A stretch of DNA of 64,000 nt. Source: Cryptosporidium bovis (taxonomy: Eukaryota; Apicomplexa; Conoidasida; Eucoccidiorida; Cryptosporidiidae). Position numbers and translations under genes: made by a program. The notes beneath the pieces are model-generated. The model was not told the DNA's origin, did no database searches, and saw only the letters and a program-made list of their open reading frames with translations. Positions 1-54,174 of the stretch are shown here, piece after piece (the stretch's first letter is position 1; each line of letters opens with the position of its first letter). The DNA is taken from contig VHIT02000017.1 of assembly GCA_009768925.2 (NCBI GenBank), positions 62,001-126,000 of the forward strand, read 5' to 3'.

Positions 1-3000
1 TATCAAATATATTAGGCGATTGTCTTGTTTCTGCTGCATTTGTCTGTTTTGCAGGTGGTCTTGATCAGATACAAAGAAACAAATTGATGGGACTTTGGAA
101 TAATATACTTGATAAATACCAACTTTCGCATTCTGATGCATCTACATTTAAGATTGTTGACTATCTTTCAAAACCAAGTGAGAGACTTATGTGGCAGAGT
201 CTTGGACTCCCAAATGATGATCTTAGTGTTGAGAATGCAATTATCATTAAACGACATATCAGATATCCTTTAATAATAGATCCTTCAGGTCACGCTACCT
301 CTTTTCTTTTAGAGCTTGGTAGGCATCCTTCTCAAGTCGGAAAATCAGGTGGCATTGGTGGGAGTGGGACAAAAACAGGAACATCAAATAAAGGAAGTAC
401 AGGTAACAGTACGATAAATGGAGGAAGCACTCTGTCTGGAGGAGGTAATAACAGTGGAAACAATGGAACAACCAACAGTGGAATTACAAGCTCGAATGCA
501 GGCGCAATCGGCATCTATGACGGAATGCCTGGGGGAAAATTGCAGACAACAACCTTTATTGATTCTAATTTTCCTAAGCTTCTTGAGTCCTCTCTGCGTT
601 TTGGATCTTCTTTGTTAGTACAGGATATCGGAACTGCTCTTGATCCTCTTATTTACGGAGTTTTAAACAAGGAGATAAGGCTTCGTGGTGGCAGATCTTT
701 GGTATCTGTTGGTGAAAATGAAGTTGATTTTTCATCACATTTTAGAGTGTATTTAACTAGTCAGGACCCAACAATACAGTACGGACCGGATGTTACTTCA
801 AGAGTAACCATGGTCAATTTTACAGCTACACCTGCCTCTTTGCTTGAACAAAGCAGAAACATTATACTTAAGGAACTGAGGCCAGATATAGACAAGAAAA
901 GGAACGATCTTATAAGGCTTCATGGCGAATATAGAGTTCAGTTACGTGAATGTGAGGATGATTTGCTACTTGCTCTTTCAAATGTAAAAGGGAACATATT
1001 AGAAGATGAAACAATTATAAACACTCTCGAAACTTTAAAAAAGAAGGCAGAAGATATTCAAAATGAGACATCCAAAATGGAAGCAACTATGCAACACATA
1101 GATAAAGTATTGTCAAAAATACTCCCTATTTCACTTGCAGTTACTCGTGTATATTTTGCTCTGCAACATTTATCATCTATTTGCTCAATTTATCAGTATG
1201 ACTTGGATTTTTTTAACAGATTATTGTATTCGGTATTAATGAAAAAAGTATCCAAAAATAACATAATTGAGGAAATTGAGGTTGATGTTGGTGTTGAAAC
1301 TGAGAGGGAAGAAAAAGGTCTTGATGACAATACATTAAGACAGTTAATGCTAGATCTGCTTTCTGAAGCTTTTGCTAGAGCTGCTCAGGGACTTTTACAT
1401 GATGATAGGGTTGTTTTGGGTCTTCAGCTGACACGGATATACATTGAAGCAATTTGTAACGTCAATTTGGATGAAGTATTGGGAGAAGAGTTAAATTTAC
1501 TAACCAAGGAATCGGTATCTGCAGTAATGACTCTTGAAAAAAGGGCAGAGACTGAAAAAACGGATGTTTTTCCAGAAGAAATCATTCCAAATACCCTAAA
1601 TCTAGATATGGAACAAAAAGGACAGCTTGGCCTGCTTATTTCCGGAAAAACTTCCAAATCATTCTCAAAATTAAGTGAATCACTAAGGCAAAATCTTAGT
1701 AACTGGGAAAAACTTATAGGGTCAAGTGAACCTGAAACAGTGTTGGAAAATAGTCTAGCATCTTCGCTTTGGAACGAATCCGATTTAGAATGCAGAAACA
1801 TTGACGAAAATGCGAGTAGCGATACCAGAGAATTACTTAAAAAGTTTAAAAAAGGTGTATTAAAATGTGTATTACTCAAGATAATTAGACCAGACAGATT
1901 AAACACTCTATTTGAGTCACTTATAACATCTGTATTGGGTGCTAAGTTTTCAAAAGGGGTCGTTGAATTTTCAAAAGACTTTCTTAGGGAGGTCGTTAAT
2001 TCCCAAATTGTTGAAACAACCCCACTTTTGTTCGTAACTTCACCTGGATTTGATGCATCCCAAGTAATATTACAACTCTCATCTGAATCTGGAATATCGC
2101 TAACCTCAATAGCCATAGGCTCTCCTGAAAGTTTGTCTAAAGCAGAAAACACAATAAAGCAATCTATGAGAAAGGGAAGTTGGGTGTTATTGAAAAATGT
2201 TCATCTTTCTTCAGGAGGCCTTGATTTTATTGAACAATTATTGCAAAACAGGCAAAACAGGCCCAATTCTGGGTTCAGACTTTTCCTAGCAACTGAACTC
2301 TCAAAGAGTCTAACTAATCCAAGCTCTAAAAGGGAAGCTATTGCAGACACACTCTCTCCATTGGGTATATCATTTAATTTAATTCGAATATCAATGACAA
2401 TTGTACTGGAAGCTCCTGTAGGACTTAGAGCGGCTTTGCAGAGAGCTAGTGAAGCCACAATTAAAACAAATATGGTTGCTTCAAACAATACTGGAGAGAA
2501 AAAAGGAGGGGTTGACTCTGGATCCACGCAAAATGCAAACACAACTATCAGCTTAAGGCTCAGATTTTTGTTGGCATTTTTGCATTCTGTAATACTTGAA
2601 AGAAAAAGATACACTCCTATTGGATGGACAAAGTATTACGACTTTAGTGAGGCTGATTTGCAGTGTTGTTTGGGTATTATTGATAAGTGGACTCCTGCAG
2701 GCCAGTCAGTCGATCCTGAACAGATACCTTGGGACGCCATTAGAAAACTAGTTTCTCAGGTTGCATATGGAGGAAGACTCGACAATATTGTTGATAAACA
2801 AATACTGAAAGTACTAATTGAGGATATTCTCTCGCCAAAATCTTTCAATGACAAATTTAGACTTATTTCGTCGACGAGTGGCTGGGAAAAACTTTTATCA
2901 AGTAAAAAGTCAGGAACTAGTTCAGAAGGTGTAACTATTTCACTTATTGCTCCAGATACAGATAAAAGAGTCCAAACTTATTTAGACTGGATAGAAACTA

Positions 3001-4385
3001 TTCCAGACAAAAATTCGCCTATTTGGCTCGGACTTTCTCCTTTGGCAGATAATGTGATTCTCGCTCAAAAGGGTCGTTCTTCTGCGAATAAGTGGAATAA
3101 ACTAGTTATTAGATCTAGAAATGAGACACCAGATCTGCTTCCAAAATCAATAAACCAGGCGAGATCAAGTGGTGAAAATAACTTATGTAAGTTTAATATG
3201 GAAAGAAATGATACCGGAATTAGAGACGGAAAAATAAATGGAAACGAAACAACTGGAATTCCATCTTGGTTGTTGAATATTAGAGATAGAATTTCCAACC
3301 TCAAACTAACACTTGAGATATTTTCGGAATACATTTTAGTTGGATCCTTCGAAATCCTGAACCACTCTAATGAAGTGCAATCGGATCCGATAACAAGATA
3401 TTATATAGGCGAGGTATCTGGCTGTTTCAGAAGCTATAAAGAAATATGGAGTGACTTGAAAGATTTGGAAGATTCTATTTTAGGTAGAACAAAGCTAACA
3501 AACACAATAAGAAGCGTTGGATTGAGTATTGCTTCAGATACTGTACCGGAAGATTGGCTTAAAAATGGTGGTCTCAGAGCATTAACATGCGGAAACTCGA
3601 ATATGTCTTCTTTGGATTTATGGCTTCCGGACGTACTAAAGAAGCTTTCTCAATACTCATTGCTGATATTGAATTTATATAAAAGACTCAAATTGAGCAC
3701 TGAAAACAAAAAGTTGGTTAGTAAAGTTGAAGAGAATGGGGAAATTCAAACACTAATTTCAAACGTAACGTCATTCTGCCCCGGAATGAAATCAATAGGA
3801 ACCAGAATCGTTTGGCTTGGAGGGATGCACGATCCTGGAGCCTTTTTCACTGCTTGTAAACAATATGCTGCTGGAATTTTAGGTTGCAGTTATAATTTGA
3901 TTGTACCGAAAATAGTATCAATTGAAGACGATCACTCTAAAGGGAATGGCATACTTGACCAATTGGTAAAACGCGAACAAAAAGATATATATGAACAGGA
4001 AGATAATACTAATAATACTTATGAAGAGAAAGATGGTCCTATATTTGCCATAGGTGGAATAACCGCAGTTGCACTTGAATGGAAAAATGAATCCAAGATA
4101 TTCGAATTAAGCATAGAAAAGGCAGTATCAGAGGTTCCCGTTGCTTGTATTCAATGGGTAAAAGGTACCCCTGATGAGATCAGAAATAGAAACAACATAA
4201 CTGATAATGGATACGAACTTAGCATATTACCTCAAAATCCCGTTGACAATTCTGTCCCTATTCCTGTTTACAAAGACTCTAGTAGAAGCAACATTTTGAT
4301 GTGGCTTAATGTACCAACAGATCCGGACGAAGACATTAAACAGTGGAGACTTGCTTCTGCTTCACTTATTTTATGGAAAGGATAA
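1..4385 (+). CDS. Dynein heavy chain, C-terminal part (5' end cut by window edge)
   Basis: Motor subunit of a dynein, a minus-end-directed microtubule ATPase. A cytoplasmic form is expected, because Cryptosporidium has no flagella. The frame is open from base 3; the first visible residues (GDCLVSAAFVCFAG) match the end of the dynein stalk/AAA5 junction, so no start lies in the window and the N-terminal tail, AAA1-4 and stalk are to the left. About 1,460 codons are present. In order they hold AAA5 (IIDPSGHA, then FRVYLTSQDP and VTMVNFTATP), a helical linker with the GNILEDE motif, AAA6 (LLFVTSPGFD, WVLLKNVHL, FRLFLATE), the RRKF/GW-like block (ERKRYTPIGW), the YGGR motif, and the C-terminal domain ending WKG. 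A Gly/Ser/Asn-rich insert of roughly 60 residues (bases about 330-540) interrupts AAA5. Confidence in the family is high; the dynein class is inferred. Confidence 0.93.
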   Translation, partial: SNILGDCLVSAAFVCFAGGLDQIQRNKLMGLWNNILDKYQLSHSDASTFKIVDYLSKPSERLMWQSLGLPNDDLSVENAIIIKRHIRYPLIIDPSGHATSFLLELGRHPSQVGKSGGIGGSGTKTGTSNKGSTGNSTINGGSTLSGGGNNSGNNGTTNSGITSSNAGAIGIYDGMPGGKLQTTTFIDSNFPKLLESSLRFGSSLLVQDIGTALDPLIYGVLNKEIRLRGGRSLVSVGENEVDFSSHFRVYLTSQDPTIQYGPDVTSRVTMVNFTATPASLLEQSRNIILKELRPDIDKKRNDLIRLHGEYRVQLRECEDDLLLALSNVKGNILEDETIINTLETLKKKAEDIQNETSKMEATMQHIDKVLSKILPISLAVTRVYFALQHLSSICSIYQYDLDFFNRLLYSVLMKKVSKNNIIEEIEVDVGVETEREEKGLDDNTLRQLMLDLLSEAFARAAQGLLHDDRVVLGLQLTRIYIEAICNVNLDEVLGEELNLLTKESVSAVMTLEKRAETEKTDVFPEEIIPNTLNLDMEQKGQLGLLISGKTSKSFSKLSESLRQNLSNWEKLIGSSEPETVLENSLASSLWNESDLECRNIDENASSDTRELLKKFKKGVLKCVLLKIIRPDRLNTLFESLITSVLGAKFSKGVVEFSKDFLREVVNSQIVETTPLLFVTSPGFDASQVILQLSSESGISLTSIAIGSPESLSKAENTIKQSMRKGSWVLLKNVHLSSGGLDFIEQLLQNRQNRPNSGFRLFLATELSKSLTNPSSKREAIADTLSPLGISFNLIRISMTIVLEAPVGLRAALQRASEATIKTNMVASNNTGEKKGGVDSGSTQNANTTISLRLRFLLAFLHSVILERKRYTPIGWTKYYDFSEADLQCCLGIIDKWTPAGQSVDPEQIPWDAIRKLVSQVAYGGRLDNIVDKQILKVLIEDILSPKSFNDKFRLISSTSGWEKLLSSKKSGTSSEGVTISLIAPDTDKRVQTYLDWIETIPDKNSPIWLGLSPLADNVILAQKGRSSANKWNKLVIRSRNETPDLLPKSINQARSSGENNLCKFNMERNDTGIRDGKINGNETTGIPSWLLNIRDRISNLKLTLEIFSEYILVGSFEILNHSNEVQSDPITRYYIGEVSGCFRSYKEIWSDLKDLEDSILGRTKLTNTIRSVGLSIASDTVPEDWLKNGGLRALTCGNSNMSSLDLWLPDVLKKLSQYSLLILNLYKRLKLSTENKKLVSKVEENGEIQTLISNVTSFCPGMKSIGTRIVWLGGMHDPGAFFTACKQYAAGILGCSYNLIVPKIVSIEDDHSKGNGILDQLVKREQKDIYEQEDNTNNTYEEKDGPIFAIGGITAVALEWKNESKIFELSIEKAVSEVPVACIQWVKGTPDEIRNRNNITDNGYELSILPQNPVDNSVPIPVYKDSSRSNILMWLNVPTDPDEDIKQWRLASASLILWKG

Positions 4386-39934: not shown

Positions 39935-40337
39935 AATAGTAAAATACATGGCATTTCCAATCTAGAAATGCAGCTCAATTATTTTAATGCAGAAATTGTA
40001 GTTTGCTTTCAATAAGTAGTGGAGGGATTGGGAAAAGTACATTATAAGTGCAAGAACACCACTATAGTTACGATTTAAGTAGTTATATGGCGTCAATTCG
40101 ATAACAACATGGTACAAATTTAACGACACCTTAGTCAGGGAATTGTTATGAAATGTACTAAGTTACACAAAATGATTTGTCTGATTTACTAGACAAACAT
40201 AAACCCAGTCAATACATTTACACTACACAAAGTTAAATAAAAAATAATTAAATTAATGCATCAATTTGAAAAAATAATAATAGTAATAATTCAATATTTA
40301 ATTTCAAAAACTAACACCTGTGGTACATCTTCATTTC

Positions 40338-40355
40338 ATTATTATTATTATTATT
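40338..40355. repeat. (ATT)6 microsatellite
   Basis: Six ATT units just downstream of the giant gene's stop codon, in its probable 3' untranslated region. Confidence 0.8.
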
Positions 40356-40373
40356 AGTATTATATACAGTCAA

Positions 40374-43300
40374 TCAAATGAAGGAATTAAATGGAGGTTT
40401 CCTTGTGTTAATTGACTCCGAATTTCCTTCGGAATTCTTTCTACTTTGTTGATAATAATCAAATCCTTGGTGAAAGCTATTTAGAGAAGTGTGATTATTA
40501 GTGAAATCGTGGTGAATAGCCGGGGGGACTAAACCACCGTTCGTGTTCGTCAAAATGCCTTGAGTAATTAAATTGTGTTTTTGCTGCATATTTACTTTGT
40601 TAAGGTCACCTCCAAGCATTGTTACTGTTGATGGGAGAGAAGACATAGGAGCTGCAGAGTGCTGTTTTTCTGAAGGCATTGTTGTGAATATGGAGGGCTG
40701 GTGTTGCTGGGAAGGTATTTGACCCTGTAATTGTCCTTGCATTCCTCCTCCCCAAGTATTCATTATATGTCCATTTACTTCGTTTCCAGCTCCCAAGCTA
40801 TTCCAAAAGTTGTCCACACATCCCCACCTCCCACTAATAGCATCGTTATTCTGAATTTGTGGTCCTTGTTGGTTCCAGATTTGTTTTGTTCCAGAGCTTA
40901 AGTTATTATGCATCGAACCAATTACGCCGCTATTTCCACCACTTGCAATCTCAACGTTGATACTCTGACCTGCAAGACTGTTTAAAATGCTCCCAGTACT
41001 ATTACTACCACTTGTATTATTGTTAATGTGAGCTGCGCTATTTACACCATCAGATAAGTAATTGCTTATTCCCATTAAATGATGTGATGGCTGCTGGATC
41101 TGCCTTTGTCCTTGGAGACCAATTCTAAAAGGAACGGAATTAGCATTCAACACACTTGTCGCACTACCACCACTGTTAGTATTTGTTGATGATACTGAAG
41201 TATTGACTTTAACACCTTCGGACCCCATAAGCATCAGGTCATCGTTAACACCAGTATTAACATTATTATTATGCATCATTCCTTGTTGAATGTGCCCGAA
41301 TGGATTCTTTCCAAAGTTTCCAATGTTGTTTATCTCAGAAAGACAGGAAACCAAGCTTGGATGCGTATTCACAGCAAGGAGGTGGCTCCCACCATTACTA
41401 GTGTTGTTCACATGTTGCTGACTCATCATACTTCTAATGTTACTATTGTTTTGCAACATGTTCACGTGCTGAGGGTATTGAGAAACAGATTGGTGTTGCA
41501 GTAGTTGCTGTTGTTGCACACCACCAACTCCCAATACACCACCTACAGTGCCTGTAAATCCAATATTATTTGTCCCAATACTTTCTCCTCCGCCACTGTT
41601 GCTCCCAAATACATTCTTTATTGCAATATTAGTGTTGTTCGTTGAAGCAGTCAGTGAAGAGTCAAAGGTTGATCCTGAGAACTGATCCGGCAAATTAACG
41701 ATACCTGAGGCACTGTTACCAATATTATTATTGTCTGAGGTTGTTGGAGCAGTTAAGATGTATGGTGATGAGCAGTAAAAACTGTTGACATTGATGTTGG
41801 AAGAACTCATACCAGAATTGACACTGCTACAGTCGTTTACGCCATTAAAACTGTCAATAATACTATTGTTTATGTTTAAACCTCCTCCAATTGCATTTCC
41901 GGTTCCATTCCCAACTCCGGGTGTATTTTGTACATGACAAGTATTGTTACCTGTAACAGCGTATTGAGAATTAGGCATCCCTAAAAACGGTGTAAGTCCA
42001 AATCCCAATCCAGGGAGCGAAGATATCAAAGTGTTTGATATATTAGAAGTGTCTCTATCAAACTCATCACCATTCTCGTAAAAACTTAATGGAATTGAAA
42101 AGTTAAAAGAGGGACTTTGCAGATTAAGTAAGTCAAGAGGCAGTGACGCACCATCCTTCTTTCTATTAATATCTTTACAGCTCCTAATGTTATTTTTATT
42201 ACCACCAGAAACCGGGATATTCTTTCTGTCATAGTTCACTTCATTTAAATCAAGTCCATCATCTACATTCTGTGGGTCATTTCTATCGACTTCAATAATT
42301 GTATTAGTTTGACTAACAATGCTTTGTGAACTAGCGAATTCACTGTTTGAATTTCCAAATAAGTAAGAGATTCCGGAACGTTTTTCATCGCTTATTCGCT
42401 TATCGTCCCTCTTTTCCCTCCCTCTTTTCTCGCACTCCTTTCTTTCTTCCCTTCTAACCTTATGATCATTATCATGAACGTTATTCTCACATGAAATATT
42501 CCCCTGTAATACACCCCGTTCACAATTCTCAACTCCATCGGAAACAGTTTTTAACAAATTCTCAGGAGCGTCTATTGGTGGTGTTCCCCTGTCCTCGAAA
42601 TCCTCATCTTTTGTTTCATCATCGTCTGCAGCATCTTGTTTTTCATCTTGTTTTACAACGCCAATATTGTCACTGGTGGTGTTTAGTATTTCATTGCTGT
42701 CAATAAAGTCTCTATAAAATGAACAACTATGCATATCTCTAAATCTCTCTGTGCTCTCAAAGTCATTTTCCAGTAATTCCATCACCTCCCTTGGTACAGG
42801 AGAAAATACTTGTATCATCTCGTTATTATCTAAAAGCTTATTTTGGATTTCCAAATCGGGATTTGGGAATTCAAAGTGAGTGCAGTAAAAGAACATATTT
42901 GGGAAATATTTTCTGTCTAAATTCAATTGTTTTTGCCCAAGGTACTTCGTATCACCTACAATAGTGTGACCAATTTGATGCATATATGTTCTTATTTTAT
43001 TTACGTTTCCCAATTTCGTTGTACAAGTACAAAGAGAAAAGGTTGAAGGAGAACCACCTTTGTAATTTTTAAACTTTAGATGTTGGCAAACGCTATATTT
43101 CGCTATACTCTCAGTACCATCTGAAGAAAGACACTTTGAAAATATTCTGTTAGCAGAGTTGCATACTATGTTGGATATGGATATATTGGTGTCGGATGTA
43201 TTCTGCATCTGTCCATGGCAAAGAAAGGAAAATTGAAATTGCATTTTTGATAAATTCTCAACATTCTTTATGTAAACGTTCATAAGATTTCTGTTTTTGA

Positions 43301-46300
43301 AAAACAATACAGGAGCTCCGATATCAACACCAAACTTAACTCCGAATAATTCAGAGTAAGAGTTGCCGTCAATAATGTCACTATTCTCATTATTGTAAAT
43401 GGAATTTGAGTCATTTAATAAAAAGCATTTTTCACGAAGATAGTGGTAAATGCTCTCCATTCTTCCACTGTTAAGCGCATCCTCAAAACTAATTCCTTTG
43501 TTGCCACAACTGTATGAACAATACCAAAATGGAGGTTTAAAAATGACGCACCAGTTTCGTTCATTAAGAAGTATTTCAGGAACCTCCTTTCCGACCTTTC
43601 TCATTTCGTCTAGTTGAGATTTCTCATAAGTAAAGTCATCTATATCATTAAACAAAATAATGCTTTCTATGTACTGAATAAGATCCAAAGTTTTTTTACT
43701 TTGTGATACAATAGAATTTGATTTTGAAGAAAAGTATTCACATGAGCTTACTATCGTAAGTTTAATTATTTCCTCGTATATACTTAGTTTGTCAGTTATT
43801 CTCAGTGATGATATCCAATCTGGGCATTGGTATTCAAACATTGATATATTATCATCTACAAAATTCTTTGTCGTATACTGCTTCAAACCAATGCAAAATG
43901 ATGTTATTCTAATTAAAAGATTTTCCACACCTTTTACTCCTTGCATTGTAGATATCGTGTTCATGGCATCTTTAATATCAAATATGTAAAAGAAGTAACA
44001 AAGTATTATTATTGACTTGACAGATTTGTATCCTGTTGACTTAATAAGTGAGTTTGCCTTAACATAGTCTGTTTTAGGAAGCAGGCCCAAATATAACTCA
44101 ATTATTGATGAAGGTAAAAAACCAATTTTAGAAATAAGGTATTTCGTGAATGAAATAACTATCCTTATTTGCAAAGGCAAGACTATCTTGTACATCCTTA
44201 TTTCTTTATCCCTTCTATTTTCATGTTCATTTAATTCATTGGATCTCATTGTTTTTGTCAACTCGGATTTAATTTGATTTTCTATACCAGTTAGATAGTG
44301 TAAATTTGTTTCGTTCGAAAGATATCTTTTAATGTACTGTATAACCTCTCTTTGCAATGTTTGAATGTCAACCTTTTTGTTATTCCCTATCAAAGTCATA
44401 TTATTCAGTAAATCACCAAAACCTCTCATCCAATTCGAAAATGATAAATATGACTCTTCATAATTTCTTTCACCTAGACTTTTCTTCTCAACGTCAAATT
44501 TCCCAAATAACGATGATACGTAATACTCCGCATATTTTTGGATTGTCAACTCGAGTATTTGACTTATTAAGTTCGAAACACTAAACGAGTCATTTGAAAC
44601 AGAGTTGACAGTTATATTGTACAACTCATCTGGAACACTTAAAAACCTCTCTTTTCTTGAATCCATCGTCTTTCTGTCAACACTGCTGTCTACTTGTTCT
44701 TTTCTGTTTTCTGTATTGAGTGACAATGAATCAGAAGTTTCTTTCCCGGTTTCACTATTATTTTCTTGATTAGTATTGACTCCGGTACTTGTATTTGTGT
44801 TGAGATTGTTGTCAGTATTATTGAAAGTAATAGCTGCATCACTAGTAACTTCAATACCCTCCTCATTATTTTTACAGACCACTTGGCTGCTTTTAATGTT
44901 TACCGAGTTGCCAATATCAAATTCATTGTCTGTTTTTTGCTTTCCAGATACCGAAACATCAATTTCAGATTCTTTTAATGCTAAAGGAGATGATTCTGTC
45001 TTGAATCTCTCTTCATCTTTAACAATACTGTCCTCATTCAAATTTGTTATAACTGCCTCTTGTTCTGAAGATTTTATACTTTGTGACTCCAATCTTCTTT
45101 GCGCATTTAGAGCCTTAACAATGCTGGATTTTTGGAGTGAAGGAATTCCAGGAAGTTTCTTTGACGACTTTTTCTTCTTTTTTGAAACAGATGAGACGCT
45201 ACTAGTTATGTCAACATTTTGGCTAGGACTTGAATTTTGAGGGTTCTTTTTGCCGTCATCTGCTAGACCCAGTGGTCCTCCTACGGCATTAGTAGTAGTA
45301 ACGCCTCCGCTTCCTTTCCCCCCTACAATACTTCCAATTCCTATTCCAGCACTTCCTATGCCAATTCCAACGGCCCCATCTTTTCTGTGAACAGAAGATG
45401 AATTAACAGGAGCAGCTGACGAATAAAATGATTTTCCTAAAAGATTTCCTCCAATGTATCCAGCAGCAGTTGATTTAAGGGTACGTGATAAGTCATCTGG
45501 GGAAACTTTGTAACTTGCTAGATTGTGTTTAGAGTTGATGTCTAAGTAATCTATTGGAGCCACAAACATTCCATCTACGTCTTCCAAATTCGACTTAGCT
45601 CCAGATAAACCTCCACGGTCAGAATTTTCCGTTATAAGGGATGAAACAGAGATTTTGCTAGGATCATCACTCCCGCAAAGAGTGGATGCTGCAGCCATGG
45701 CAGCTACCGAGGAAGGGTTTTGCAGTAGTTTTTCAAAAGCTGGATGACCTTTTTTAATGTCAAAAACTCCACCTGTTCCTATTCCAAAACCTATCCCTCC
45801 ATTTAATGCGTTATTTCCAACTCCCGAGGCGACGACATTTGCAGTAATGCCACCATTCTTGCTATTTCCTCCACCTAAATTTGCCCCCTTTCCACTGGAA
45901 GCAACAACGCCAGCAATACCATTAGGGTCTGGAGAAAATCCAGCAAGGCTTCCAATGGCACCCAGATGTCCGAACCCACCCATGCCAGATACACCAATTC
46001 CACCAGAAATTGGTGAATCTGGACCGCAAAATCCCTTGATAATCGGTGGTGTTGCATTGAAAATCCCAAAGTTCGAAAGCCTCTTTGAATTCATACTCGA
46101 AATAATGGTCAAAAGTTCGTCTCGTGTAAAAGTTGATGGAAGATCCTCAAAAATAGTTGAATAAGAATTGGTGGAAAGAGCCGCTGAGATAAAAGGGGAA
46201 ATGAAAGGACATTCTGTTATAGAAGGCTGTGAATTTTGGCCGTTTGTACCTCTTTTCTGAATAATAAATACATCTCCAGTAGTTCTGTTTATTTTTTTAA

Positions 46301-49300
46301 TAGAGGATGTCCACCTCCTCACATTCTGACAAACTCTAACATGGCATTCCTCCATAACCATATAGTCCTCTGCACTAGGCGTCTCTTTGCTCGCACTTTT
46401 CGAAATGAGTCCCATTTTTCTAGCTCTTGGAAAAACCCAGGTTGCAATACAGTCCCTGAGAGACTTCCTGGCCTCGCAAATGGAAGCACTTAACAAAGTT
46501 ATGTTAAGAGTGTTTGGATCAAACCATTTAAATATAAGTAAAGGAGCTATTGAATCGTCGTTCATCGGAAACTTTGTATTCGACCATAATGGATCTATCA
46601 ACTTTGCTCTAAACATATTTGAAAATAATCTCGGAACCGTTTGATTTATTGCTCTCGAACCATTACATGTTGTTGAATGTGCTATTCGGCTTGGACAAGA
46701 GTACAAATGTGGCAAATACAATTCGTTAGACTCCCCTGTTATTTGAGAAGAGGATGCTTGTGCAGCACCGTTGATGAAATTGCTTACATTACCACCTCCT
46801 CCAGGAACAAGAATCGAGGCAGATGCACCTGTTGAGATGGAAGATGCTAGCACGGAGTTCATCTGGTTACTTGTAGATTGTGGTGGTGGTTGCAGCTTGA
46901 GCTCCGGTGGCACACACAATAACACTGCGACATCACAAAATGTAATATAATTTGATTTCAGTGGACAATAGTAATGGTGTTCCAAAAAGTCATTCGGATG
47001 CATATATGTATACACAAGCCTTCCTCTCCTTGTGGGATCTGTATCTGGACGTAAGGAATAAAGACAAAACACGTCTAGGGGATTGTTAGGAACCCAACTA
47101 GAGTCTGGATTGTTGTCAATATCTTGAATGGATGAAAAATTCATTGAATTCTTGCTTTTGCCGTGCTTTCCAGAAGAGGAGTTAGTTTGTTGCAGACCTT
47201 GGATCAAGCATTGTTGTGTAGCACCTCCAATAAAGTTTTGTCCAGGGTAGTTGTTATGGCAAGTAACACCATCAACAGAAGTTGTTGACGCAACACCAAA
47301 TATACTGTTTCTGGACTGGGGGGTATCTATTGGAGAATGATCTAAAGCAGACTCATTCAAACTACCTCCTATTTTGGTATCTAAAAACTGAAGATAGAGG
47401 ATCTTCCTTATCGCATTATAGAGATGTCTTACTGTGGCAAGTCTGTTTACATACAACACTCTTGATGCACATAAATTGCTCTCAGATGCAAAAGAGTCTC
47501 TTCCAATAAGGTCATGTTCAAATATAATACCAACTAACAACGGGGAAGAAACAACGTGAAAGCTGTGAAGCGGAATAAATACGTACGGGTCAACATAACT
47601 AAACGCAACCTGGTTTACTTGTAAATGTTGTATGGCTTCTGACAATGGATTTACATAAACGGATCCACTGTTGCCGTTTCCCCCAGATCCTCCTAAACCC
47701 GAAGAACTTTTACTTGAAGAGGAACTCTTTTTCTTATTTGATTGTTTAGAGGGAGTGTGATCTCTTGTTCCTGAAGTAACTCCATTCTGTGTTTTTGCAC
47801 ACTGTCCATTTGCATTACCAAGATGGGTTAACGAAAAGGGCAAAATAAGTCTTTTTGATAAATTGAAATTGTTTTCAACTGGCAAAACCTCCCCATTTCC
47901 GTTACTAATTGTGTTTTGGATCTTAATTTGTTCAATGTAATGATGTTGCTCCAGTTTCAATGAAGCCCTATAGGTAAATGAAGTGAGTGCAACTTGCATA
48001 ATATAGACCACTATGGGGATCACAAAATGTGAACTCCCTACTTCACTTGTGAAACGATCTATCATTCTATTAGTCGGACACGTTATTGAACAAGAAGAGG
48101 ATCCGGTTCCCCCTGCCCCACCTGGTCCAGGAACACATCCCAAATTTGCCGACTCTAGAGCAGCTAACACTTGGTTTATGGCTGCACTAAATAGCTGTTT
48201 GTTATCGCAAAATCTAATCAAGTTGAGCGGACAACAACTAGACTCCAGTAAAAACTTTGATTCTGTTAAGAATCTCGCACAAAGGTCTTCAGGAGTGAGT
48301 CTCGGATCGAAAAGCAAATCATCGCTATTCTTGAATAAAAGTCTTTTTAAACGCATAGTTATAGTTACCGGTAATAAATCATATGCAAATTGAAGCAAAT
48401 AAGGCCATAAAATACTGTGCAACCTGTTTACTAACAACAACGAATTTTCATATATAGAAGAGGGTAAACTCGTTACGCAACCTGTAAGTACTGCATTTGG
48501 AACGGGATTATTAAATTTTGTTTGTAGCGTTAATTGACACTTCTTATTACTCTTTTCGTCTTGACCAGCTTGTGTTGCTGATAATACATCTAAAGCACTA
48601 ACACCATCAACAGAATCCTTATTCTCAGCATTATTCCCATCTATAGCATCAACAACTTGTCCCTGACACGTTTGGATCTTGTTTGCCGCACCTGAAGATC
48701 CTGGCTCTGTTAGCAATAGGAAAAGTTCAGACTCAGATAAAATGTAGTCCTCCTCTTCCTCTGGAACATCAAATTCATTAAGAAGCTTCTTTATATCTGA
48801 AAAGACTGAATTTGTTAAAACTCTCAAGTGAGGAACCACATTTAATACCGATAAAAGATCCTTTGGATCCAAATCAGGACCAAACATTGTTTCCAATATA
48901 AGCCCCCAAAACTTAGCTACTGAATGTTTAAGTGGACGTCCAGACATAAGTGAGTCAAAAAACGCTTGCGCTGACTGAGTGAAAACAGTCTTTCCCGAAA
49001 TAATCATGCAAGGATCTACCGAAAAGGCCTGAATTAGTGGTTCTTGCAACTGAAAATGGTTGTTTACCTGTGGCCAACCCCATCTAAAATCAACAAGAGT
49101 CCAAAGAGCATTTGGATCTATTGATAGTCCTGAATCCATCAACGGATGTCCAAATACACAAGTCGTTGAGTCGCAAACTGTTACATTTGCAATGTCCACA
49201 CACATAGATATTTGATCTAATTCTGATGTAGGAACATCAAAATGGTTGCAACTTCCTTCAGTGTGATTACTACCATCTACATTGTTACCATTACCACCTG

Positions 49301-52300
49301 TTATGTTATTTGTTATACTACTCACTGTATTTCCAGGACTGTTAGAAGCTGCTTGTGTGGACACCCACGACGGTATATATTGCAATTCCTCTTCTGTAAC
49401 TTCTAGAATATCTAGTGTATCTTGATACAATTCAGGATTTATAGATTTTAAATCGCAATCTGCCAATACATCACCTGCTGCTATTGAGTCTATATAATCC
49501 TCTGCAACATAAACTGCTGCTGCACAAAAGAAACCACCATGACATTTCCATTCTGTAAATTCTATTTTAGGTATTAGTCTTTCAATTAAACCATCACACA
49601 CTCTAAACCAAGGACCATCTTCTTCCGGACGAATGAGCAATTGATGTAAACTTCTCCCGGGTGCACCACCAATTCCACCTCCTGTGCCTCCAGAACCGTC
49701 TCCTTCTCTGATTATAACACCATAGAGTGAATACCATTTCTCCAGATACTGACTTGATGATCCGAAGAAATTACTATCTGAGTTAGGTGACTTTCCATTG
49801 TATTTTCGCCCGCTTGCATCATCCAATAAGGAATCCAATTGTATTGAAACATCATGATTATCAAAACCTTCAACTTCCCCCTCCTCCGAACCATAATCTA
49901 AAGAACACTCATCGTCATTGGAATTTTCTTCGTTATTTACATCTGAATCTTCGTTTTTGGTTTTCACATTTAATTTCCCATCTTGACTTAAAACATTAAT
50001 ATTCGAGTCGCTTTTTTCACCATTGTTCTCATAAACCACACCTTCAGAATCCGAACAACCATCATTGTTGATACTCCCAAGTGCTTTTGTTTCAACTACG
50101 GACGACTCCGATGTCTTGTCTAAATTATTTTTAATATTTTTTGACAAAGAATCCTCATTGCAGCTATTTTCATATTCTTCTAGTCCCGTTCCTTCCAGTT
50201 CTGCCTTTTTGTTAAAAACGGATAATAAAAAGTTGGTTCTCTTGCTATTAGTCAAATTAATCTTTTCAGAAGGTCCCACATTTACAGCACTCTCATTATC
50301 ATTTTTATTCGTTTTTTGATTCTTCATAGTACCAGAAACACCACCAGTACCAACATTTTTTTGATTTACGTTGCCATCAAAACCAACCTGATTAAAATTA
50401 GAACCATCCGTTTGTCCAACACCGCCGTTGCAACTAGCAGTCAAAGGAGTAGAACCCTCTAATAGGAACGAGGCCTCCAGACGGAAAGGAACATCAAACA
50501 ACTCCCCTTTCTTGGCATTTTTAGGAGGAGTAAAGTAGATAAAAAGTGTCTCTGGAAACCTCTTAAACCTTCCTGCATATTGTTCGATTGCCTTTGGAAT
50601 TGAATGAACGTGTTTAGCTCGCAAACAACAAGTAGAATAGTCAGAGAAACAGTCTCCGCCGTCCTCAGCTACGCTTGAAAACAACACTCTACAGGTATTG
50701 TCAAATTCTGTAGGGACTCTTAAATCTTCTTCTAACTCAAATATAGACGATATTGAAAATCCACTATTATTATCATTGTCGTTTGCCTTTTTTTCGGGTG
50801 CTTCAAAAAATTGATTCGTATTATTGTCCAAATAAACAGCTTTTCTGTTAGGTCCCATAGGAGAGTTCTGGTTATCTCTTGAACTATTGCTGCTGTTACT
50901 ATTGTTGCCACTACCACCTCCTGGAAGAGACTTTCTGTGATGCGCCGCTATTTGCAGAATCGTATGTGCAGACTCCAGGTAAATTGCTCCAAATACAAAA
51001 CAATGAAAGCGCATAAGAGGGTCTGATACGTCTATTCTTTGTAAATCATTCATATAAAGAGCCTTCATTACCTTAGAACAATTTGGAGGGGGTGGTAATT
51101 TGCATCTAGAACACTCCAGTTCTCCATACTCTTCAGAAGAAACGTTTCCAGTATCAGCATAAGAATTATTTTGTTTTTGTGAAGATGAATGACTAACAAC
51201 ACTTCTGTCCTTAAAAAAGTTCTCACCACCACATTTACAACAACGAGAAGAGTTACACCAACCATCAATTATAGTAGGATCAGTTGCAATCCTTTCTTGC
51301 CAATTGTGTCTAATTGATCTTTTAACGGAATATGCTATTGGCCAAAGAGTCATATAAGCAAATGTTTTTTGAAGAGCTTCTATAATGGATGTTTGTGAGC
51401 TGTTTGAATTAGTTGTATCGGGTCTCTTTAATCGATCAGAATTCTTTTCCTGTGATTGATAGGATGAAGAATTTTTCCCGGATGAATTGTTGCTCCTATT
51501 TATAATTTTATTGGAGTTCCAAGTGAAAACTGCTCTTCTAAATTCTTTAATGTGGTAAAGAAGATGTACAAAGGCAGGGACAAAATCGACGTTTAAGTGA
51601 GATTTCACGGTGGGAACAAACAAATTGCTACTCGACCAAAGAAGCCTGTCCATTATTGAAAGTGGACCTGGAGAACCCATTACGTTCGCTATACCATTTC
51701 CCATTGGTAAATTACTTCCATTAAATACTAGTGATGAATTATTGTTGTACTGGTTATTTGGCAATATCGTTGGAAGTGGAGGAACACCGTAGACCTCTGA
51801 AATTGACATACCTGTAGAGTCTGAAGAATGAATAGGGTATTTTGTTAGTCCTCTATTGTTCTTCTCCGCCATTTCATGAAACGGACAAAGGTTAGTGTTC
51901 ATAGAACCAAGAGAACCTGAAGAACAAGATGGTGAGAAAGGAGATTCAGAACTGTCATTCCTATACTCACCATCTTCATCATATTCATTGTTGTCATACT
52001 CATCAATAACATCATCGTCATCACCAACATCATACTCTCTGTCTTTATAACTTTTACCTCCATTTTTTGACATATTACCTTCAATGCAGTGTTTAAACTG
52101 AGAAACAGTGGTCATTGTAGATGCATTTCTATATGGAAGAGTACCCCATATATTCCAAGGCCTGCATTTCGGGGAACGAGACCAAATCCTCGGAAATGGT
52201 GGTTCTGCTCTTCCTCTTATAAGAACCGTTCCCTCTTCGTCAACAAAACCCGCTGATTTTGTAAGCCTTGCATGAGAAACCATTTTATGCCATCCTCTAC

Positions 52301-53338
52301 TCATTGCATCGTGGGAAAAGGTCCAGTGAGCCCATGAAGTTATATTTGCTTTCGGGTCCAAAAAGTTAACAACTGAGAGTTGAAAACGGACATTTGGGAA
52401 AACCCAATCATCAGGATAAGATTCGTGGTAAAGGGCTTCTAAAAATACGCTTAAATAACTATTTTCCGAATCGTTGCAGCTCCCTCCTCTTGGATGAACC
52501 AACAATCTGTAATAAAATCCTCTACAATAACCTATTTGTGGTGACTCCATGTCAATTGGAGTTTTTGCAATCTTCCAAAAATTTCTTATTGGAAAGTCAA
52601 TATACATCTTATCGTCGGAAGTTCCGACATTTCCACTGCAACATGTATTACCATTACCAGCAACACCTCCATCAATTGAACCCTTATTGTTTCCGAAACT
52701 ACTTGCATTCCCATTAATACCTACACCTATCCCTGCGCAGGAGTTTTGACCCGACGAAGTACTAGATCCACTATTATTACTACTTCCAGTATTACTGGAA
52801 GATTCAAGCATATTTCCAGAACCTATCATATCATTGTTACCAACTAGATTACTTGCAGCTGAACTTGAACTGTATTCATCTTCGTTGTATGAACTGGAAT
52901 AACGACTCCTTCTTGTATTCGTTGAAAAGTTTGGGAGTCTTGGCCCTACCGGATACAAACCACTGTACACCTTGCCAAAATGACAACTAGAACGTGAAAC
53001 TTTGTCATAGTAGTCCAAACTCGATTCTTCCAAAGCAGAATGCGGCTGTATTTCAACTTCTGTCGGCCTTAGGTCCCTAAGCAGTGACTTATCGTAAAGG
53101 ACGTCCTGAAGGTCTTCGGGATCATCTTTGCAACCCATTTGACCCCAAGTAGGTATATTTAAACCTTTTGGAAGTCTACAAAGTTATTTACTTCAACCTT
53201 TAATTCATATATGGTCTATTATTATTTTTTTAAATTATTTATCTCAGATTTTCTCGGTATTCTCTCCTACGCTCACATCCTAGAGGGGTGTCTTTTAAGA
53301 AATTCCCGCACGCGCCTTTGCGATTGCTCGGTACTCAT
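40374..53338 (-). CDS. Giant MATH-domain protein with USP-like and RluA pseudouridine-synthase-like regions, two exons
   Basis: Proposed exons are 53277-53338 and 40374-53175, giving about 4,287 residues; a 101-base intron with GTGAGC donor and TTTGTAG acceptor joins codons exactly. The N-terminus leads through KGLNIPTWGQ into the long frame. A MATH domain lies at about 212-349 (FWKIAKTP ... GYCRGFYYRLLVHPRGG ... SWAHWTFSHDA), as in USP7. At about 546-575, SHLNVDFVPAFVHLLYHIKEFRRAVF resembles the USP start but lacks the catalytic Cys box. Residues about 3228-3460 resemble an RluA-type synthase: VIFKPP, VDIGAPVLFFKN in the place of HRLDxxTSGLLLFAKN, and IRTYMHQIGHTIVGDTKYLG. The rest is low complexity; the last 550 residues are Asn/Gln/Gly-rich. 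Function is unknown. A ubiquitin-pathway or RNA-related scaffold is possible. Confidence 0.7.
53176..53276 (-). other. Intron 1 of the giant MATH gene
   Basis: 101 bases with donor GTGAGC (53271-53276) and acceptor TTTGTAG, phase 2. An in-frame TAA lies 17 codons before the internal ATG at 53138, so the frame cannot simply extend without splicing. Confidence 0.65.
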
Positions 53339-54174
53339 TTAAATATTGACTCTAACAATAATAGTAATTAGTATTTTTTGCGTATTAGTTATTTTGACAA
53401 ATAAATAAACAGATAACGTTGTTGATGTATACTTGTATACTACTTTAAACGGAGTATTTTTCCTTGTAATCCTATTTAGAATTATTATTTACAATTGTAT
53501 ATCAATATGTAAATATGGTTAATAGTTGCGAGTCTTGATTTAATGTATGTCGCTGACTTTTTATAAATGTCACCTTTTTTAAACTTGATAGTGTCTAGTT
53601 AAACCGGATGAATATGGTATAGAGGTTTGAAATGTATTTGTTTATGCAGATTTATGTATGTATACTTCGTATGTACGTTTATATGTGAGTGCATTTACAT
53701 TTATTTTGTTCTTGAGTATAGCTTCTGTATAAGTTGGTTATATTTGTGGTGGTTTTGGTTGCAGAACAGATTAATTTGGGCTGTTGATGTGATTTTCTCT
53801 TTGATCTTGGTTTGGATTTATTCGGATAAATAGTGAACCCGAAGGTAATTTTATTGGTTTCGGTTTTTTTGTCTTATTTGTTGCTTAGTTATATGCAGAT
53901 TTACGTACAATTCTCCCCCTGAACCTCCTGTAAATCTTGCTTTCAACCGATCGCAATTAGAATGAATCTCGGGAATCAAGGGAATATGCAGACATCTGGG
54001 GAAAAATAGCAAATTTAAAAGAAAAATCAGCATAACTTATAAGAAAGTTGAAATAACATGAAATTTTATTCTAAATATAGTTGATATTAAACATCGAGTC
54101 ATTTATTCAATTATGAGATAACGTATTAATTAGCAAACTAATCCGTTGAATTAAAAGGAATCATTAACTAAAAA
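53339..54174 (-). other. Spacer upstream of the giant gene, with exon-like island
   Basis: 836 bases. The part at about 53600-53845 is A/C-rich on the - strand, like a 5' leader. The part at 53851-53995 is GC-raised and looks exon-like (see findings). No complete gene could be built from it. Confidence 0.45.

What the first reader, a model, noticed from the sequence alone, without database searches (positions are those of the whole stretch)
40374..53338. Giant MATH / USP-like / RluA-like fusion protein
One gene of about 4,290 residues joins a USP7-type MATH domain, a USP-like start lacking its catalytic Cys box, and a C-terminal RluA-type domain whose HRLD motif reads VDIGAPVLFF. This would link ubiquitin-type binding with RNA-modification-type architecture. 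It may be a pseudoenzyme scaffold or a divergent active synthase. I know of no described protein with this combination.
Basis: partly seen in the sequence, partly recalled or inferred. Interest (0 to 1): 0.75.

Follow-up and report, generated by a model that had tools for sequence, protein, structure and literature searches.

The report
Giant two-part pseudoenzyme of Cryptosporidium
A 4,254-residue protein of a Cryptosporidium parasite joins a MATH domain to relatives of a ubiquitin-removing enzyme and of an RNA-modifying enzyme, and in alignments both relatives lack their key catalytic residue, so it likely works as a scaffold that would hold proteins and RNA rather than as an enzyme.

The parts
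40374..53138 (-). single open frame, 4,254 codons plus stop, about 466 kDa
   Evidence: mass computed; eight homologues P0002-P0009
52236..52592 (-). MATH domain, residues 183-301
   Evidence: Pfam MATH_2 E 6.3e-11, 43.1 bits, cut-off 32; 60% identical to the Besnoitia homologue over 177 residues
49353..51641 (-). USP7-like pseudo-catalytic region, residues about 500-1262, in four conserved blocks with low-complexity inserts
   Evidence: co-linear blocks with P0007 and P0009; UCH 33.0 bits in P0009, cut-off 23.9; MAFFT with the genome's own USP7; structure model failed
51585..51587 (-). Asp518, in the column of the USP catalytic Cys
   Evidence: Asp in 8 of 8 aligned family rows, Cys in the genome's own USP7
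51102..51242 (-). two CxxC pairs (633-636 and 676-679), possible zinc site
   Evidence: zinc binding inferred
46236..46592 (-). likely USP7 ICP0-binding (ubiquitin-like) domain, residues 2183-2301
   Evidence: PF12436 E 0.0054, 16.6 bits, below its cut-off 27; 27.7 bits in P0009; residues 2190-2297 41% identical to P0007 over 109 columns
42741..43589 (-). RluA-type pseudouridine synthase domain, residues 3184-3466
43314..43340 (-). degenerate motif II, residues 3267-3275 (VKFGVDIGA); Gly3270 in the catalytic Asp column
43230..43232 (-). Phe3303 in the column of the conserved Tyr
42984..43010 (-). degenerate motif III, residues 3377-3385 (GNVNKIRTY for GRTHQIRVH); Arg3383 kept
40377..42698 (-). 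low-complexity tail, residues 3481-4254, rich in N, S, G
   Evidence: composition; residues 3480-4254 24% identical to P0005

Best explanation
This single 4,254-residue gene encodes the Cryptosporidium member of an apicomplexan protein family that joins a MATH domain, a USP7-like region with Asp in the catalytic Cys column, and an RluA-type domain with Gly in the catalytic Asp column, so it likely works as a non-enzymatic adaptor that would hold client proteins and RNA together. Shown: the frame, the MATH domain, the co-linear family, the RluA homology, and the replaced residues in alignments. Predicted: the RluA fold (model). Inferred: that the MATH domain binds client peptides as it does in USP7, that the pseudo-USP and Ubl parts bind ubiquitin or partners without cleaving, and that the RluA domain still binds RNA or an RNP without modifying it. 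In the sampled coccidian and transcriptome relatives the RluA part keeps its catalytic residues and probably still makes pseudouridine; the loss is then specific to Cryptosporidium and looks stepwise (C. muris keeps the Asp and Tyr but not the H and R; the others have Gly; the window's lineage also has Phe for Tyr).
For: Eight homologues were found and all were examined (two of the three searches scored only the candidates sharing most words, so the family may be wider). BLASTP of the window protein against Besnoitia gave 8 co-linear blocks from MATH to RluA. P0009, a transcript-derived ORF marked complete, carries MATH, USP7_ICP0_bdg and PseudoU_synth_2 above their cut-offs in one frame. Asp stands in the Cys column in 8 of 8 aligned rows, and P0002, not in that alignment, reads the same. 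The genome has a MATH+UCH gene with an intact Cys box elsewhere and a canonical RluA-type gene, L001, so neither activity need come from this protein. A profile built from the six Cryptosporidium RluA rows alone finds P0009 (E 9.9e-38) and the canonical L001 (9.2e-06) and no reversed decoy among 85 targets. The RluA core (3300-3430) is 90% identical to P0003 and 75% to P0005, while four linkers are 45-71% and 17-28%, which points to a kept fold.
Against: The pseudo-USP model failed (pLDDT 35.9, pTM 0.29), so the USP fold rests on sequence. The window's own segment gives no UCH hit; 3 of 5 A2 rows do at E up to 10, C. muris does not, and the profile of A2 against PDB gave no USP. hhalign to the own USP7 covers only the C-terminal, His-side part, so the exact Cys column rests on MAFFT, though the window's box has no Cys in any nearby register. 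No binding, localisation or RNA data were available for this protein. The first part of the RluA domain (3181-3265) is only 71% and 38% identical to P0003 and P0005, about linker level, and the core only 44% to C. muris; P0004 and P0005 appear to lack the first strand. All this also fits plain decay. No coding-DNA comparison was possible, so selection was judged from protein identity only.
Confidence: 0.6

Rival explanations
1. The RluA domain has no role left in Cryptosporidium and is decaying; only MATH, pseudo-USP and Ubl parts matter.
For: Motif II, motif III and, in the window lineage, the Tyr are replaced; P0004 and P0005 appear to lack the first strand too. MATH is 92% identical to C. 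muris, the RluA core only 44%, and residues 3181-3265 stand at about linker level.
Against: The RluA core is 75% identical to P0005 and 90% to P0003, where four linkers are 17-28% and 45-71%; the model still has the fold.
Confidence: 0.25
2. The RluA domain is a divergent active synthase that uses Asp3272 of VDIG.
For: Asp3272 lies two residues from the catalytic column; Arg3383 is kept.
Against: The column of Asp3272 is Glu in relatives whose catalytic Asp is intact, and Glu in P0004 and P0005; the alignment is ungapped to the 'KN' that follows, and RluC's RLD aligns at the same place. The Tyr is Phe and HQIR is NKIR.
Confidence: 0.05
3. The USP-like region is an active protease with another nucleophile, or is not USP-derived at all.
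For: The window segment alone has no UCH hit and no usable model.
Against: P0009 passes the UCH cut-off (33.0 bits), the family has MATH before it and a USP7-type Ubl after it, and no Cys stands in the box in the Cryptosporidium rows.
Confidence: 0.08

Closest known systems
Records named 'large having a MATH plus (possible) UBC hydrolase plus type I pseurousyn plus hexapeptide' (P0002, P0005; Cryptosporidium)
   Same: same gene family and domains; P0002 is 96% identical
   Different: the name implies enzymes and, as listed, says nothing of lost catalytic residues; no repeated hexapeptide stood out
Toxoplasma and Besnoitia MATH / RNA pseudouridine synthase superfamily proteins (P0008, P0007; 6,535 and 6,719 aa)
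   Same: co-linear blocks, Asp in the USP Cys column
   Different: RluA motifs HRTD, Tyr and HQIR intact
Plasmodium falciparum PFE0570w / PF3D7_0511500
   Same: called RNA pseudouridylate synthase and MATH and LRR domain-containing protein, 1,187,585 Da; the C. hominis homologue's record name also says MATH and LRR
   Different: its sequence could not be fetched here; orthology is inferred from names
USP7 (a Plasmodium UBP-1 is described as homologous to USP7)
   Same: MATH first, USP-like region, likely ICP0-binding Ubl
   Different: no catalytic Cys; the Asp of the MATH 'DWG' stretch of solved USP7 (Asp-Arg-Gly in the genome's own USP7) is Ser in all nine; fused to RluA
RluA family: RPUSD1, RluC, RluD
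   Same: fold of the predicted model and sequence profile
   Different: catalytic Asp, Tyr and the HR and HQ of the motifs replaced

Membership tests
USP7-type deubiquitinase | N-terminal MATH domain | tested here: met
   Pfam MATH_2 43.1 bits, cut-off 32
USP7-type deubiquitinase | UCH/USP domain over the curated cut-off | tested here: inconclusive
   no UCH hit in the window segment or C. muris; 33.0 bits in P0009, 22.5 in P0007, cut-off 23.9
USP7-type deubiquitinase | catalytic Cys | tested here: not met
   Asp in 8 of 8 aligned rows
USP7-type deubiquitinase | catalytic His | tested here: inconclusive
   a His lies one column away in 7 of 8 rows, Tyr in C. muris; register uncertain by one
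USP7-type deubiquitinase | ICP0-binding Ubl domain (PF12436) | tested here: inconclusive
   16.6 bits in the window, cut-off 27; 27.7 bits in P0009
RluA-type pseudouridine synthase | RluA fold | tested here: met
RluA-type pseudouridine synthase | catalytic Asp of HR(L/T)D | tested here: not met
   Gly3270
RluA-type pseudouridine synthase | conserved active-site Tyr | tested here: not met
   Phe3303; role of the Tyr is recalled
RluA-type pseudouridine synthase | conserved Arg of HQIR | tested here: met
   Arg3383
RluA-type pseudouridine synthase | Pfam PF00849 over cut-off | tested here: not met
   no hit in the window segment; 3 of 6 A1 rows hit at E up to 10, best 8.4e-24
apicomplexan MATH / pseudo-USP / RluA giant family | the three parts in this order in one frame | tested here: met
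   co-linear with P0007, P0008, P0009
apicomplexan MATH / pseudo-USP / RluA giant family | one mRNA | tested here: inconclusive
   no RNA data for the window; P0009 is a transcript-derived complete ORF

The most novel reading that the evidence does not exclude
A USP7 copy that lost its protease in an apicomplexan ancestor was fused to an RluA synthase to make a ubiquitin-guided RNA-modification machine; in Cryptosporidium the RNA enzyme then died as well, stepwise within the genus, leaving a giant double pseudoenzyme that couples ubiquitin or client recognition to RNA binding with no chemistry left.
Probability: 0.35. Interest if true: 0.75.

Novelty: new variant of a known kind. Interest (0 to 1): 0.55.

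Why it matters
Inactive relatives of USPs and of pseudouridine synthases are each known (recalled), but a fusion of the two would physically link the ubiquitin and RNA systems. The family has members with an intact-looking RluA domain and members with a dead-looking one, so comparing them would show whether the protein's job needs the modification or only the binding. A P. falciparum gene that by its names appears to be of the same family was reported with 57% attenuated growth in an insertion screen (PMC2952599, passage) and as a gametocyte hyperproducer (PMC10269797, passage; its row lacks the asterisks that two other rows bear), so it may well matter to the parasite.

Tried and rejected
Pfam on the whole 4,254 residues gave nothing, and phmmer of the whole protein against PDB nothing; cutting into pieces was needed. 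phmmer of the MATH and RluA pieces alone against PDB gave only chance hits. One search failed because my coordinates were out of frame. Weak hits below cut-off were set aside as noise: Ezh2-like CXC, Som1, DUF4834, DUF2670, COG4_m, Vert_HS_TF and NCBIfam GrdX. PF12436 searched over the genome found nothing, with no control ringing: it says nothing. The pseudo-USP structure model was unusable, so no fold search was made with it. Profile A2 against PDB found no USP, A3 (MATH) against PDB nothing at E 0.01. The 'hexapeptide' of the record name: among the four commonest six-residue words printed for each of nine proteins, only homopolymer runs occur four times or more; two short tandem arrays lie in the gene. 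An endocytic role through UBP1/K13 was considered: the micropore paper has no MATH or pseudouridine in its main text (PMC10105704, passages); not pursued. TGGT1_306660 (called PUS1 in PMC11321763) and TGGT1_312370 are both named RNA pseudouridine synthase superfamily (passages), but I could not tie either to P0008, so I draw nothing from them. PFE0570w and PF3D7_0511500 passages in PMC5082630, PMC5071865, PMC8184011 and PMC10283033 added names and an exon insertion only.

Full report
Source. The window lies in a genome of 9,064,136 bases in 43 contigs. Its giant protein is 96% identical to P0002, whose record name is cut after '[Crypto', and 70% to a protein of Cryptosporidium ryanae, so I take it as a Cryptosporidium near C. 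ryanae.

The frame. One frame runs from the ATG at 53138 to a stop at 40374, 4,254 residues. The sixteenth codon before the ATG is an in-frame TAA. In 100 shuffles of the same stretch the longest open frame was 188 codons, mean 117. Eight homologues, all examined, came from three searches (searches scored only the candidates sharing most words): five further Cryptosporidium proteins (P0002-P0006; 2,982-4,251 aa), Besnoitia (P0007, 6,719 aa), Toxoplasma (P0008, 6,535 aa) and a EukProt transcript-derived ORF marked complete (P0009, 4,462 aa; species not shown). BLASTP of the window protein against Besnoitia gives eight blocks in the same order, from MATH to RluA, and the others keep that order. 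That makes a chance or assembly fusion very unlikely.

MATH. Residues 183-301 match Pfam MATH_2 with 43.1 bits (cut-off 32). It is the best kept part: 92% identical to C. muris and 62% to P0009. Aligned to a solved USP7 chain (2f1z) through the genome's own USP7 gene, the Asp of the 'DWG' stretch is Asp in the own USP7 (DRGW) and Ser in all nine family members (SRGW). That this Asp is a peptide contact in USP7 is recalled. It suggests a changed client specificity.

USP-like region. It runs over residues about 500-1262 in four conserved blocks between low-complexity inserts. The window segment alone has no UCH hit, and 3 of 5 aligned rows have one at E up to 10; P0009 passes the UCH cut-off (33.0 bits against 23.9), P0007 nearly does (22.5) and C. 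muris has none. In a MAFFT alignment with the MATH+UCH gene of the same genome (L002/L011) the catalytic Cys column is Asp in 8 of 8 family rows; P0002, not in that alignment, reads the same. The own USP7 matches solved USP7 over its intact Cys box. The His register is uncertain by one column; C. muris has Tyr there. hhalign to the own USP7 aligned only the His-side part (E 9.7e-06). A profile of the non-Cryptosporidium rows reaches the own USP7 weakly (E 4.1e-05 and 1.6e-04 among 85 targets), one of the Cryptosporidium rows does not. The AlphaFold2 model from five rows failed (pLDDT 35.9), so the fold is not shown. A likely USP7-type Ubl follows at 2183-2301: 16.6 bits in the window, below the cut-off of 27, and 27.7 bits in P0009.

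How it most likely works. The genome has its own MATH+USP gene and its own RluA-type synthase L001, so neither activity needs this protein. I infer that MATH picks clients, that the pseudo-USP and Ubl parts bind ubiquitin or partners without cleaving, and that the RluA part binds RNA or an RNP. In coccidia the last part probably still modifies RNA. These steps are untested.

What is known. Record names of P0002 and P0005 already list MATH, UBC hydrolase and 'type I pseurousyn'. PFE0570w of P. falciparum is an RNA pseudouridylate synthase with 57% attenuation in an insertion screen for growth (PMC2952599, passage), appears as PF3D7_0511500 among gametocyte hyperproducers, in a row without the asterisks that two others bear (PMC10269797, passage), and is a MATH and LRR domain-containing protein of 1,187,585 Da elsewhere (PMC4140736, passage). 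That PFE0570w and PF3D7_0511500 are one gene is recalled. Searches of the held library for MATH domain with pseudouridine synthase and Cryptosporidium, with Toxoplasma and pseudouridine, with USP7 and Cryptosporidium, and for the record's wording gave 0 papers. A 2008 survey of apicomplexan ubiquitin enzymes (PMC2408969) and a 2022 review (PMC9552668) hold no 'MATH' in their main text (term counts and passages). I therefore found no paper in this library that describes the lost active sites; most subscription papers are not in it.

Noticed in passing
window 51102-51242 (-), residues 633-679: Two CxxC pairs inside the pseudo-USP region, kept in four of four Cryptosporidium rows checked (window, P0003, P0005, P0006); Besnoitia has a Cys-rich stretch there, P0009 has none. 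Could be a zinc ribbon like that in the fingers of many USPs (recalled).
   Followed up: partly
window 53130-53138 (-): The protein starts MGC in the window, P0002 and P0003, and MGN in Besnoitia and Toxoplasma, which could allow N-myristoylation; P0004-P0006 and P0009 do not start so.
   Followed up: no
window 40001-54000: The giant gene has a higher GC content (0.34-0.39 in 2-kb steps) than the rest of the window (0.24-0.34), apart from 1-4000 (0.36-0.37), where another long frame lies.
   Followed up: no
window 24990-63065, neighbours: Of nine neighbouring frames scanned, six match Pfam families: a helicase-type AAA pair, histidine phosphatase, TRAPPC-Trs85, ATP_bind_1, CS and Mo25; three have none. 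None of the six is a ubiquitin or RNA-modification family.
   Followed up: partly
G000:C18:93323-95287 (L002, L011): USP7-like gene of the same genome with MATH and UCH in one frame, intact Cys box, and a long insert in its MATH domain.
   Followed up: partly
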